The position numbers and the translations under genes were made by a program. From Lachnospiraceae bacterium (lineage in GTDB: Bacteria > Bacillota > Clostridia > Lachnospirales > Lachnospiraceae), in NCBI GenBank assembly GCA_014239155.1, contig JAAZZQ010000060.1:287792-351791 (forward strand): a DNA stretch of 64,000 nucleotides, given 5' to 3'. Positions 26,829 to 50,994 of the stretch are shown in pieces. Numbering within the stretch: the first letter of the stretch is position 1; every line of letters starts with the position of its first letter. Below the pieces are notes generated by a model that ran no database searches, was not told where the DNA came from, and worked only from the letters and a program-made list of their open reading frames with translations.

Positions 26829-26858
26829 TTGCTTATTAGAATCGATAGCGTTTATAAT
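26829..26858 (+). promoter_or_regulatory. Candidate promoter of the MoxR operon
   Basis: TTGCTT-18 nt-TATAAT upstream of the MoxR ATPase. Confidence 0.5.
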
Positions 26859-26971
26859 AGTAGATAGGAACTACTAAAAAATGATTTAGAGATGTCCATA
26901 CAGTGTTTGGTAGATAGAAAGATACTGTGTAGATTTTTTGAATCCAAAAATAATTCAGAAAGGGTATAACA

Positions 26972-28090
26972 ATGCAGGAATCGATAAAGCCTCCAGTGGA
27001 GGTACGCTATCAGGAAGAACTTGAGGCGTTGAAGCAAGCAGATGAGGAGCAGGGGAACAAGAAACCCGATAATTGGCAGATGTCACCAAAGGCAGTTAGA
27101 ACGTTTATTTTGGGCAGTGAAAAGCCTATCAAATATAAGCGAAAAAATTATGAAATTAAGAAAAAATACTTTGGAAATGATGCGCTTGTGGAGCGTTGCA
27201 TTGTCACGCTTGCTGGCAATCGTGGCCTAATGCTTGTGGGTGAGCCGGGGACAGCAAAGACAATGCTCTCAGAACTTTTATCTGCCGCAATTAGCGGAAA
27301 TAGCAAAAACACCATACAAGGAACGGCGGGAACAACAGAGGACATGATAAAATATTCATGGAATTATGCGTTGCTTCTTGCGAAGGGACCTAGCAGAGAA
27401 GCACTTGTGCCAGCGCCACTTTACATAGGAATGGAGAAGGGAATCCTTACTCGTTTTGAGGAAATTACAAGAACGCCGGCAGAGATTCAGGACAGTCTTA
27501 TTAGTGTGCTGAGTGATAAGGTATTGAATGTGCCAGAGTTAGGCGATGATGGTTTTTTGTTCGCACGTTCAGGATTTAATGTGATTGGGACAGCAAACAC
27601 AAGAGATAAGGGTGTCAATGAAATGAGCAGTGCGCTAAAAAGGCGTTTTAATTTTGAGACTGTTATGCCCGTGAAAAGTGTTGTCCTAGAAAAACAAATA
27701 ATATTAAATGAAGTCAGTATGCTTGCGGAAGAAAATCATGTGGATATGAAAGCTGACGAGGATGTGGCGGAGCTTCTCGCATCTACTTATCATGAGCTGC
27801 GCGAAGGTGTTTCTTCTTATGGGCACCGAATTGATAAGCCAAATGCAGTGATGAGTACAGCAGAAGCGGTTTCGGTCTACTATCAGACAATGCTCACAGG
27901 TTATTATTATGGCGAGGGACATCTTGACGTGGAGTGTCTTGTCCAGAATCTTGTCGGTGCTATTTCCAAGGAGGACAAAGATGACTTAGAGAAAGTGAAA
28001 GGATATTTCAACACAGTAGTGCGCGCAAAGAGCGACAAAGAAGGTGGATTATGGAAAGAATATTACGAAGCGCGGAAATGGCTGAAATAA
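26972..28090 (+). CDS. MoxR-like AAA+ ATPase (YehL-like)
   Basis: LMLVGEPGTAKTMLSELL Walker A, GILTRFEEITRTPAEIQDSLISVLSDK, GTANTRDKGVNEMSSALKRRFNFE. Confidence 0.9.
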   Translation: MQESIKPPVEVRYQEELEALKQADEEQGNKKPDNWQMSPKAVRTFILGSEKPIKYKRKNYEIKKKYFGNDALVERCIVTLAGNRGLMLVGEPGTAKTMLSELLSAAISGNSKNTIQGTAGTTEDMIKYSWNYALLLAKGPSREALVPAPLYIGMEKGILTRFEEITRTPAEIQDSLISVLSDKVLNVPELGDDGFLFARSGFNVIGTANTRDKGVNEMSSALKRRFNFETVMPVKSVVLEKQIILNEVSMLAEENHVDMKADEDVAELLASTYHELREGVSSYGHRIDKPNAVMSTAEAVSVYYQTMLTGYYYGEGHLDVECLVQNLVGAISKEDKDDLEKVKGYFNTVVRAKSDKEGGLWKEYYEARKWLK

Positions 28091-48948: not shown

Positions 48949-48981
48949 TGGTTTAAAAGTGTGGGAAGGGAGAGCTTTGTC

Positions 48982-50994
48982 ATGGTGATAGGCATAGAGG
49001 ACAAGAAATTTGCGCAGATGTTAACACTTTTGGGAAATCTGGGTATTTCAGCATCAGACTGCGCTCTGGCAGAGGAATATCTGATTGGTAAAGTTGGAGA
49101 TGAGGTGCTAGACCAATTTCAACGAATGGATTTTAGTGCTGCCCAAATTACAGATGAGGTGCGAAAAGAACTAGGTGCGATTGAGTGGGAGATGCACGGA
49201 GATGCTATGTGGCAGCGACTGTTTAATGTGCTGTTTGCCATTGGTCATAATACAAGCAGTGTTCTGTTTTCTCATAATTGTGTAAATGGAGAGCGCTGTA
49301 AGGCAATGGTAATTTATATTGAAAAATGTTCTGAGAAGACAGGCTACCTAAATGATCATCACAGGACTTGTTTTGATATGGGAGAACTAATACATGAAAT
49401 TGATAATAAGCCCGAAAGCGTGTGGGAAATTGTAGAACAACTAAAAGGTGAAGGTGCAAAGTATTATCTGTCCGTTTTGTCAGCATATTTTTATAAAAAA
49501 TATGTTGATAGCGAATTGGTAGCTGTTGAGGATATAGAGTTGATGCAAACATATGAGAAGGGAATGCTAGACTGCCTAAATGAATGGCTGACACGTCAAA
49601 ATTGTCCCGCACAAGAAAAAATAATAACCGCAATTCGTTCCAAAAAGCTTACGCCAGAGTTGCTTGTCAACGTGAAACCATGCAATTTTACAGATTCTGA
49701 CCGCAAACAACTTTGTTTTATTGGCAGCATGGCATATTTAAATATTATGCTTTCTGGAATATTGCTGGATATTGTCAGAACATGCTTGGCTGTGGATGCG
49801 GAGTGGGTACTTTTGGCAATGTCAGATGTGATAGACAAGTCGCCAAATGCCAAGGATAGAATTGGTCAGGACTATAGTGAACTGTTTTGGATTGAACCAG
49901 AAACATATATTCGATGGGCGGCATTTGAAATTGCATATGCGTGTACAGTGTGCCCGTATCATGAAAAGTATGTATGTTCTGTTCAAATACCTATTTTAAA
50001 GAGGCAGCTTGAAAAAAATCAGGAGAGCTATCGAAAGGCGTTGGAGCAGAATACATATGCAACGCTGCTTGCAAAGGTAAACTACAAATTAGAGGATGCA
50101 ATTGATGTAATGAATGTGCTAAAGGATATATTGCAGGAGGAGAATCCAACTTTGTATGAACAGATTGGTGCAGGAAAGCCAAACTACGAACAAATTATTC
50201 ATTGTTTGGTTAGGGATACTCCGCACGTAGAGTTGGCAAGAGCGTATTTGCGGGGATATGGAACGATTTCAGAATTGTATCCATATGAGGAAGAATTTAC
50301 TACAGTGCAGATTTTTTATAGTTATTTGAAGAAATATAAAAAGCATTGCAAGGATATGATATTTCTCAATCGCTGTAAAACATTTATGGTATTTGTTGGC
50401 TCTTTGAACGTAACAATTGTTGAGAATTGTGCCAAACAAAAAACAAAACAGGTGGAGCAATTTTTCCAGATGCTTGACCATGAAAATTTGGATATTGCCC
50501 ATCAAATTAATGGTTTTATAACGTCATATAAAGCATATTGTGGACCATGTGGATGTACAACAAAAACATTTGTAAAGGGAGCAACAAATGTTTTTGCGCG
50601 GTATCTGGACAGTGGGCGGCGGGAGGAGACGCTCACTGCATTTTCCAAAGCAAAAGCGGAGGGACGCTATTTGGCACTGCTTGCAATGTGCAAAGATATT
50701 GCGCGAAATAAACAGGAAATTTTAAGTTATACATCGGACAGCGCAAAGATTGTTAAAAAAGCGCTTTTGGATATTTTGTATGCCCAGAAAGATTGGGAGG
50801 AGGATATAAAAGCACTTTTGAGAGCAAGAAAAGCGACACGGCGGGAGTTGGCGGTGCAAGTGTTAGCACATTGGCAGCAGAATGGCAGTGATTACAATGA
50901 TGTGCTTTTGCAGGCAATGGAAAGAGAGAAAAATACAAAGGTATACGCTTTAATGCAGAGTATACTGAATCGAAAGAAGAAAACGACGAATTAA
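48982..50994 (+). CDS. C-terminally truncated DUF4132-type paralogue 4 (helical region only)
   Basis: Aligns to paralogues 2-3 up to ...AMEREKNTKVYALMQSILNRKKKTTN then stop; C-terminal domain missing. Confidence 0.85.
   Translation: MVIGIEDKKFAQMLTLLGNLGISASDCALAEEYLIGKVGDEVLDQFQRMDFSAAQITDEVRKELGAIEWEMHGDAMWQRLFNVLFAIGHNTSSVLFSHNCVNGERCKAMVIYIEKCSEKTGYLNDHHRTCFDMGELIHEIDNKPESVWEIVEQLKGEGAKYYLSVLSAYFYKKYVDSELVAVEDIELMQTYEKGMLDCLNEWLTRQNCPAQEKIITAIRSKKLTPELLVNVKPCNFTDSDRKQLCFIGSMAYLNIMLSGILLDIVRTCLAVDAEWVLLAMSDVIDKSPNAKDRIGQDYSELFWIEPETYIRWAAFEIAYACTVCPYHEKYVCSVQIPILKRQLEKNQESYRKALEQNTYATLLAKVNYKLEDAIDVMNVLKDILQEENPTLYEQIGAGKPNYEQIIHCLVRDTPHVELARAYLRGYGTISELYPYEEEFTTVQIFYSYLKKYKKHCKDMIFLNRCKTFMVFVGSLNVTIVENCAKQKTKQVEQFFQMLDHENLDIAHQINGFITSYKAYCGPCGCTTKTFVKGATNVFARYLDSGRREETLTAFSKAKAEGRYLALLAMCKDIARNKQEILSYTSDSAKIVKKALLDILYAQKDWEEDIKALLRARKATRRELAVQVLAHWQQNGSDYNDVLLQAMEREKNTKVYALMQSILNRKKKTTN

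What the first reader, a model, noticed from the sequence alone, without database searches (positions are those of the whole stretch)
26829..50994. Expanded YehL/YehM/YehP/YehQ/YehI-type MoxR-VWA system with an embedded ADP-ribosylglycohydrolase
Seen: consecutive plus-strand genes for a MoxR AAA+ ATPase, DUF5682 protein, ADP-ribosylglycohydrolase, small ORF, VWA protein, double-SWIM protein, small ORF, then four giant DUF4132-like proteins. Established: MoxR-VWA pairs act as chaperone/remodelling modules, and E. coli carries yehI (DUF4132), yehL (AAA+), yehM, yehP (VWA) and yehQ (SWIM) together; MoxR-VWA ternary systems have been proposed as conflict systems by comparative genomics. Inference: this is a multi-effector version in a Firmicute, with DUF4132 proteins as clients/effectors, possibly a defence or stress-response machine. 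I know of no demonstrated molecular function.
Basis: partly seen in the sequence, partly recalled or inferred. Interest (0 to 1): 0.88.

Follow-up and report, generated by a model that had tools for sequence, protein, structure and literature searches.

The report
YehL-type remodelling operon, expanded DUF4132 array
A gut bacterium carries a five-component protein-remodelling operon, conserved from Clostridia to E. coli but of unknown function, here with a row of DUF4132 genes and a few unrelated passenger genes (including the ADP-ribosylglycohydrolase), and one of its core proteins appears to be a distant relative of the TraB/TIKI hydrolase superfamily.

Summary
Window 26972-50991 is a MoxR(YehL-type)-DUF5682-VWA-SWIM-DUF4132 operon, homologous gene for gene to E. 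coli yehL-yehM-yehP-yehQ plus yehI. In 80 loci picked by MoxR alone, and judged only where enough sequence remained, DUF5682 follows in 72/73, VWA in 69/72, SWIM in 64/67 and DUF4132 in 58/63. In the host genus, window-type DUF5682 and ~1200-aa DUF4132 occur in the same 16 genomes.

Corrections. The ADP-ribosylglycohydrolase is not a system part: it is an ARH3-like gene of a common gut family, inserted only in this species and a near-identical relative. The ORF after SWIM is a detached C-terminal piece of the SWIM protein. The fourth 'giant DUF4132' is a 677-aa remnant without that domain. An antisense Imm1 gene and a secreted-protein gene also interrupt the cluster.

New here: the DUF5682 N-terminus matches the TraB/PrgY/GumN profile (95% probability). 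DUF4132 proteins are HEAT-type solenoids with a conserved C-domain and diverged N-halves.

Best reading: an ATP-driven MoxR-VWA machine in which DUF4132 solenoids give specificity and DUF5682 is the hydrolase-like output. The anatomy is solid; the mechanism is inferred. No defence match was found.

The parts
26972..28090 (+). MoxR-type AAA+ ATPase, YehL clade; Walker A GEPGTAKT, Walker B-like RFEEI, sensor-1-like TANT
   Evidence: AAA_5 E 6.2e-32; YehL E 2.1e-95; motifs; tree
28051..30489 (+). DUF5682 (YehM-type): N-terminal TraB/TIKI-like alpha/beta domain (about residues 12-300) plus alpha-helical solenoid; overlaps the moxR end by 40 bases
   Evidence: DUF5682 E 1.7e-92; hhalign to TraB_PrgY_gumN 95%; model pLDDT 88
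30520..30582 (+). terminator-like hairpin (30520-30543) then promoter-like site (30554-30582) that set the ADP-ribosylglycohydrolase apart from DUF5682
   Evidence: consensus scan only
30608..31516 (+). ADP-ribosylglycohydrolase, ARH3-like; lineage-specific passenger gene
   Evidence: PF03747 E 8.8e-51; ARH3 E 1.6e-23; absent from all other loci but one near-identical genome
31576..31950 (+). small ORF sm1 (124 aa), clade-restricted; also lies between DUF5682 and VWA in four further genomes of the genus
32043..33266 (+). VWA_CoxE / YehP-type protein with MIDAS motif DESGS
   Evidence: PF05762 E 9.4e-43; YehP E 4.6e-95; motif
33464..33835 (-). Imm1-family immunity-type gene, antisense, passenger
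   Evidence: PF14430 E 2.3e-6; among the surveyed loci only in L057
34030..35931 (+). double-SWIM zinc-finger protein, YehQ-type
   Evidence: SWIM E 0.0044; two CxC...CxH motifs; YehQ E 1.1e-6
35959..36288 (+). sm2: detached C-terminal domain of the SWIM protein (fused to it in some relatives)
36371..37864 (-). 497-aa secreted-looking protein of unknown function, antisense, passenger found only in this species pair
38137..41709 (+). DUF4132 protein d1 (1190 aa)
   Evidence: PF13569 E 6.5e-54
41779..45360 (+). DUF4132 protein d2 (1193 aa)
   Evidence: PF13569 E 1.8e-53
45412..48948 (+). DUF4132 protein d3 (1178 aa): HEAT-type solenoid plus DUF4132 C-domain
   Evidence: PF13569 E 1.4e-52; model pLDDT 88; fold search
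48961..50994 (+). d4: truncated DUF4132 paralogue (677 aa), lacks the C-domain; decaying

Best explanation
It is a cytoplasmic ATP-driven remodelling machine of the YehL-type MoxR-VWA class. The MoxR hexamer and VWA adaptor form the motor. The DUF4132 proteins are long HEAT-type solenoids that bind targets with diverged N-terminal halves and dock on the machine with a common C-terminal DUF4132 domain. DUF5682 carries a TraB/TIKI-like hydrolase domain and is the probable enzymatic output. The double-SWIM protein (with its detachable C-terminal piece, sm2) is a zinc-dependent nucleic-acid or protein-docking subunit. The DUF4132 array gives one machine several alternative clients or recognition subunits. 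ADP-ribosylglycohydrolase, Imm1 and the 497-aa protein are passengers. Shown by computation: gene content, conservation, co-occurrence, TraB-profile similarity, solenoid architecture and paralogue structure. Inferred: motor-adaptor action (by analogy with RavA-ViaA and NorQ-NorD), DUF4132 as recognition subunit, DUF5682 as output enzyme. The physiological trigger (stress, DNA damage or conflict) is not known.
For: Conserved operon order in 80 MoxR-selected loci. The same 16 genus genomes carry window-type DUF5682 and ~1200-aa DUF4132, including DUF4132 copies on other contigs. In the 400-genome Bacillota sample, all four genomes with window-type DUF5682 (G164, G200, G417, G455) have a ~1200-aa DUF4132 gene about 4-6 kb away on the same contig and strand. 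Intact ATPase, MIDAS and SWIM motifs. DUF5682-TraB profile match with shuffle, reversal and unrelated-family controls. DUF4132: HEAT/alphaRep matches at residues 420-660, CAND1/SF3B1/importin-like solenoid matches. Paralogues share about 35% identity N-terminally and 64% C-terminally, with purifying selection on both halves (dN/dS 0.09-0.17). The array is syntenic with a sister species.
Against: No experiment on any protein of this operon was found. TraB-like activity is not established and catalysis cannot be read from the model. Whole-model PDB search of DUF5682 gave no significant hit (best E 0.022), because the helical half dominates. DUF4132 fold hits have low TM scores (about 0.2), so only the solenoid class is safe. 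In this species the row is broken by antisense genes, so the DUF4132 array may be regulated separately.
Confidence: 0.42

Rival explanations
1. Cofactor- or metal-insertion / enzyme-maturation chaperone: like NorQ-NorD or RavA-ViaA, the MoxR-VWA pair matures a specific enzyme, and DUF4132 is an assembly scaffold. E. coli molR, in the same gene cluster, was once linked to molybdate use.
For: The best-studied MoxR-VWA pairs do this (PMC9976466, PMC13036017; PMC3893208). The E. coli molR link to molybdate is cited in PMC8533742 and PMC4245954.
Against: No metalloenzyme gene was noticed as a recurrent neighbour in the survey, though flanking genes were not all annotated. DUF4132 arrays fit poorly with one dedicated client. 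In D. radiodurans, molybdate-metabolism genes such as moeA and moeB were not differentially expressed when the DUF4132 and WGR genes were induced.
Confidence: 0.2
2. Genome-integrity or stress machine: the DUF4132/WGR/SWIM components sense damaged nucleic acid and MoxR-VWA remodels repair complexes.
For: A DUF4132 gene (drA0166) and a WGR gene (dr2173) of D. radiodurans are strongly induced when the damage-response repressor DdrO is depleted (PMC8533742). E. coli has a WGR gene (yehF) beside the yehH-yehI pair.
Against: [quoted passage not shown] The window DUF4132 proteins gave no WGR match. SWIM function here is untested.
Confidence: 0.18
3. Anti-phage or inter-bacterial conflict system, with DUF4132 paralogues as sensors or effectors.
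For: Sparse distribution (8 of 400 Bacillota genomes over the DUF5682 cut-off), paralogue arrays, immunity-type genes in the surroundings (Imm1, Imm5, SUKH), and other MoxR-vWA conflict systems (PMC7159879).
Against: No PADLOC hit, no close viral copies, purifying rather than diversifying selection in both halves of DUF4132, and most loci have a single visible DUF4132 gene (54 of 58).
Confidence: 0.15
4. ADP-ribosylation-linked machine: the ADP-ribosylglycohydrolase is functional cargo that reverses a modification made or met by this system.
For: In Acetatifactor muris (L069) a NADAR domain gene lies at the same DUF5682-VWA junction, and a DUF3990 gene lies before DUF4132 in the same locus.
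Against: Both are single-lineage insertions. The other inserts at operon junctions are unrelated (RhuM, UvrD, MNT-HEPN-like, methyltransferase, GNAT). The window gene belongs to a family with thousands of members and its nearest relatives stand alone. It can equally be an orphan enzymatic immunity gene (Imm-ADP-RGHD, PMC3482391).
Confidence: 0.05

Closest known systems
E. coli K-12 yehI-yehK-yehL-yehM-yehP-yehQ cluster (YehL subfamily of MoxR)
   Same: Same five families, same order of the moxR-DUF5682-VWA-SWIM block.
   Different: E. coli has DUF4132 (yehI, pseudogene yehH) upstream, a WGR gene (yehF) and yehK; the window has the DUF4132 array downstream, a split SWIM protein and passenger genes.
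Second MoxR-DUF5682-VWA system of the same genus (SWIM gene, HEAT-like 660-aa gene, MoxR, DUF5682, VWA; L027, L034, L041, L042)
   Same: Same MoxR/DUF5682/VWA core, plus a SWIM and a HEAT-like partner.
   Different: No DUF4132 in it; MoxR, DUF5682 and VWA are diverged (window-type DUF5682 scores 307 bits, the other 497, against PF18934); followed by clpS-clpA-aat.
MoxR-vWA-centric ternary conflict systems (VMAP, iSTAND, FtsH, beta-propeller; PMC7159879)
   Same: MoxR plus VWA core with extra partners.
   Different: Third components differ; the bpMoxR model scores below its cut-off; the paper has no occurrence of SWIM or TraB or DUF4132.
RavA-ViaA and NorQ-NorD
   Same: MoxR-VWA motor-adaptor logic (analogy).
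   Different: RavA is far outside the YehL clade; the client proteins differ.
TraB/PrgY/GumN (TIKI) superfamily
   Same: Profile match over about 220 columns covering the H, E, R-E-x-x-M and G-x-x-H motifs.
   Different: DUF5682 adds a roughly 500-residue mostly helical half; activity unknown.

Membership tests
YehL-type MoxR operon (yeh system) | MoxR of the YehL clade | tested here: met
   E 2.1e-95 to YehL; groups with YehL and far from RavA, though the order inside the clade is unresolved
YehL-type MoxR operon (yeh system) | DUF5682, VWA_CoxE, double SWIM and DUF4132 partners in one neighbourhood | tested here: met
YehL-type MoxR operon (yeh system) | WGR-domain gene as in E. coli yehF (present in E. 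coli; not treated here as defining, since it was not seen in the Bacillota locus) | tested here: not met
   No WGR match in the window proteins scanned
YehL-type MoxR operon (yeh system) | ATPase and VWA proteins act together as a motor-adaptor pair | not testable with these tools
   Motifs intact; needs biochemistry
MoxR-vWA ternary conflict systems | bpMoxR family above curated cut-off | tested here: not met
   PF20030 24.5 bits, cut-off 27
MoxR-vWA ternary conflict systems | VMAP, iSTAND, FtsH or beta-propeller third component | tested here: not met
   No match to such domains in any operon protein in Pfam
Known anti-phage systems (PADLOC-DB 2.0.0) | Match to a PADLOC model | tested here: not met
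   One hit only, E 0.037, in ten proteins
TraB/TIKI superfamily (for DUF5682) | Profile similarity over the catalytic-domain length with conserved H, E, R-E-x-x-M and G-x-x-H positions | tested here: met
   hhalign 95%, score 67; shuffles at most 17, reversed 14, VWA/SWIM/MoxR/DUF4132 below 1%; YehM alone 40%
TraB/TIKI superfamily (for DUF5682) | Same three-dimensional fold | tested here: inconclusive
   Model good (pLDDT 88) but whole-model search is dominated by the helical part
TraB/TIKI superfamily (for DUF5682) | Metal-dependent hydrolase activity | not testable with these tools
   Needs assay
ADP-ribosylglycohydrolase (ARH3-like) | Pfam family and metal-site motifs | tested here: met
   E 8.8e-51; ARH3 best PDB match; S-F-T-D-D-T motif and G-D-R-D-T in the sequence

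The most novel reading that the evidence does not exclude
DUF5682 is a TIKI/TraB-type protease or hydrolase gated by the MoxR-VWA motor, and DUF4132 solenoids are its interchangeable target receptors: a bacterial ATP-dependent regulated hydrolysis machine not described before, present from Clostridia to E. coli.
Probability: 0.2. Interest if true: 0.78.

Novelty: new variant of a known kind. Interest (0 to 1): 0.5.

Why it matters
The yeh operon is a gene cluster of E. coli K-12 whose function is still unknown as far as I could find, and YehL is one of seven MoxR subfamilies (PMC3893208). A link of DUF5682/YehM to the TraB/TIKI hydrolase superfamily, plus a strict DUF5682-DUF4132 partnership within the genus, turns 'unknown operon' into a testable model with named residues and partners, in a laboratory organism.

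Tried and rejected
Defence: no PADLOC hit; viral contigs hold only remote MoxR proteins. ADP-ribosylglycohydrolase as core part: rejected after the locus survey. Positive selection in the DUF4132 N-halves: rejected, dN/dS 0.12-0.17 in orthologues. An apparent dN/dS of 0.92 for d4 was an artefact of a frameshift in the relative's copy. EreA/erythromycin-esterase relation of DUF5682: not supported, but only two sequences were available. Sequence search of DUF5682 and DUF4132 profiles against PDB: DUF5682 nothing, DUF4132 only HEAT/alphaRep-type repeats. Literature on DUF5682, DUF4132 or yehL-Q function: none found. Survey of Enterobacterales by the genome search was not possible ('of' takes only G handles). 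A MoxR tree rooted with RavA does not resolve whether the window type is nearer to YehL or to the second system of the genus.
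Full report
What is there. Window 26972-50991 holds, on the plus strand, a MoxR AAA+ ATPase, a DUF5682 protein, an ADP-ribosylglycohydrolase, a 124-aa ORF (sm1), a VWA_CoxE protein, a double-SWIM protein, a 109-aa ORF (sm2), and three complete plus one truncated DUF4132 proteins. It also counted d4 (48961-50994) as a giant DUF4132 protein. d4 has 677 aa, matches only the N-terminal part of its neighbours, and no trace of the C-domain remains downstream. 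Its orthologue in a sister species (G022, L229) is intact, while the near-identical G016 copy is frameshifted as well, so d4 is decaying.

Relation to E. coli. The K-12 yeh cluster (L006) has the same families: yehL (E 2e-95), yehP (5e-95), yehI (4e-53 to 4e-55), yehM (3e-32) and yehQ (1e-6). YehL is one of seven recognised MoxR subfamilies (PMC3893208). No paper on the function of DUF5682, DUF4132 or the yehL-Q genes was found in the library; two E. coli studies mention molR mutants or the DUF4132 region only in other contexts.

Conservation. Eighty genome loci were picked by MoxR similarity alone. They come from Lachnospiraceae, Ruminococcus, Clostridium, Bacillus, Paenibacillus, Brevibacillus, spirochaetes and Bacteroidales. 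Counting only loci with enough sequence downstream, DUF5682 is present in 72/73, VWA in 69/72, SWIM in 64/67 and DUF4132 in 58/63. The set is the 80 best matches to the window MoxR, so it describes close and middle relatives. In the host genus, classifying the match tables by score and frame length (my reading), window-type DUF5682 and ~1200-aa DUF4132 occur in exactly the same 16 of 36 genomes. Under independence this has a probability near 1e-10, but the genomes share ancestry. One partial DUF4132 hit (G006) is ambiguous. In the 400-genome Bacillota sample, all four genomes with window-type DUF5682 have a ~1200-aa DUF4132 gene about 4-6 kb away on the same contig and strand. DUF4132 copies of this type on other contigs (for example a pair at G000:C32) occur, within the genus, only in genomes that have the operon, which suggests they work with it in trans.

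The small ORFs. sm2 is not an independent gene: the SWIM and sm2 profiles overlap in most SWIM proteins, and many relatives with longer SWIM proteins (about 700 aa) have no separate sm2. The clearest fusion is L056, where one 746-aa protein matches both swim and sm2. sm1 has only 11 relatives (itself included) among 5.8 billion proteins and sits at the DUF5682-VWA junction of four further genomes.

The ADP-ribosylglycohydrolase. It is ARH3-like (best PDB match E 1.6e-23) with metal-site motifs present. Among about 100 relative loci it occurs only in L057, a near-identical genome. Its nearest genus relatives (L232, L233) stand alone, and DNA similarity to L233 (82%) covers just the gene. The closest sister locus (L063) lacks it at the same place. 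A terminator-like hairpin and a promoter-like site lie between DUF5682 and this gene (consensus matches only). The family is common: 4460 proteins at E below 1e-60. It is therefore a passenger. ADP-ribosylglycohydrolases are a known enzymatic immunity type (PMC3482391), and immunity-type genes (Imm1, Imm5, SUKH) lie around it. One observation keeps the ADP-ribosylation idea alive: Acetatifactor muris (L069) has a NADAR gene at the same junction and a DUF3990 gene before its DUF4132 gene. That DUF3990 is ADP-ribosyltransferase-like is from memory, not tested here.

DUF5682. Its alignment keeps R-H-H-S-P, E-G-P, R-E-x-x-M and G-G-x-H. A profile of the N-terminal part matched a TraB_PrgY_gumN profile built from 16 Bacillota proteins at 95% probability and score 67. 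Thirty column-shuffled TraB alignments gave at most 17, the reversed one 14, and VWA, SWIM, MoxR and DUF4132 profiles stayed below 1%. The AlphaFold model (pLDDT 88) shows an alpha/beta N-domain followed by a helical half. Whole-model search against the PDB was uninformative. I regard superfamily membership as likely and catalysis as unproven.

DUF4132. The model (pLDDT 88, pTM 0.55) is a long helical solenoid followed by a mixed C-domain. PDB matches are HEAT/alphaRep repeats by sequence and importin/CAND1/SF3B1-like solenoids by fold, with low TM scores. Copies in the genus share on average 35% identity in the N-part and 64% in the C-part. dN/dS is 0.09-0.17 in both halves between orthologues. 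Lower dS in the C-part for d2/d3 (1.1 against 2.6) hints at gene conversion. Arrays of up to five occur in the genus (L229), while most other loci show one copy.

Mechanism. By analogy with RavA-ViaA and NorQ-NorD, the MoxR ring and VWA adaptor should remodel a bound partner. The partner that co-occurs most strictly is DUF4132, whose architecture (variable solenoid, common C-domain) fits interchangeable recognition subunits. DUF5682 is the only core member with enzyme-like motifs apart from the ATPase. These steps are inferences. The trigger is open: induction of a DUF4132 gene and a WGR gene upon DdrO depletion in D. radiodurans (PMC8533742) points to stress; the immunity-rich surroundings point to conflict; molR points to molybdate. 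None is decisive.

Verdict. The 'embedded ADP-ribosylglycohydrolase' part of the title is a lineage-specific insertion. The cluster is a new variant (DUF4132 array, split SWIM) of the yeh-type operon, with a new lead on DUF5682.

Noticed in passing
L027 7201-10577 (G000:C41, near 24-28 kb); L034, L041, L042: The genus's second MoxR-DUF5682-VWA system is preceded by a SWIM gene and a HEAT-like gene and followed, in L027, by clpS, clpA and aat (N-degron pathway); L034, L041 and L042 show similar genes after VWA.
   Followed up: partly
L069 13597-14124 and 17767-18661: Acetatifactor muris: NADAR gene at the DUF5682-VWA junction; DUF3990 gene plus a 154-aa ORF between SWIM and DUF4132.
   Followed up: partly
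L226 5023-10125; L227, L228, L236: About 1700-aa DUF5724-DUF4132-DUF7737 proteins (L226 checked by Pfam), a second DUF4132 architecture, found also in genomes that lack the window-type operon.
   Followed up: no
L028 6870-14149 (G000:C32); L224 895-8304: Orphan pair of full-length DUF4132 genes away from any MoxR operon, conserved in the near-identical genome G016.
   Followed up: partly
window 11556-12095, 18097-19161, 21660-23492, 33464-33835: Immunity-type genes around the operon: SUKH-1, Imm5, ankyrin+DUF4303, Imm1; looks like an orphan-immunity region.
   Followed up: no
L112 3229-9976: In Clostridium sp. LS about nine small genes (one DUF7021+DUF2262) lie between DUF4132 and moxR; looks like an immunity-type cluster.
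   Followed up: no
L066 11199-14765; L075 13547-14599; L077 17328-17997: Other genes inserted between core genes: UvrD helicase, RhuM-family protein, a nucleotidyltransferase-like plus HepT-like pair.
   Followed up: no
window 51846-58859: Downstream: PRTase_2-TRSP protein followed by a MatE transporter, a hybrid histidine kinase, a radical SAM protein and a HAD hydrolase.
   Followed up: no
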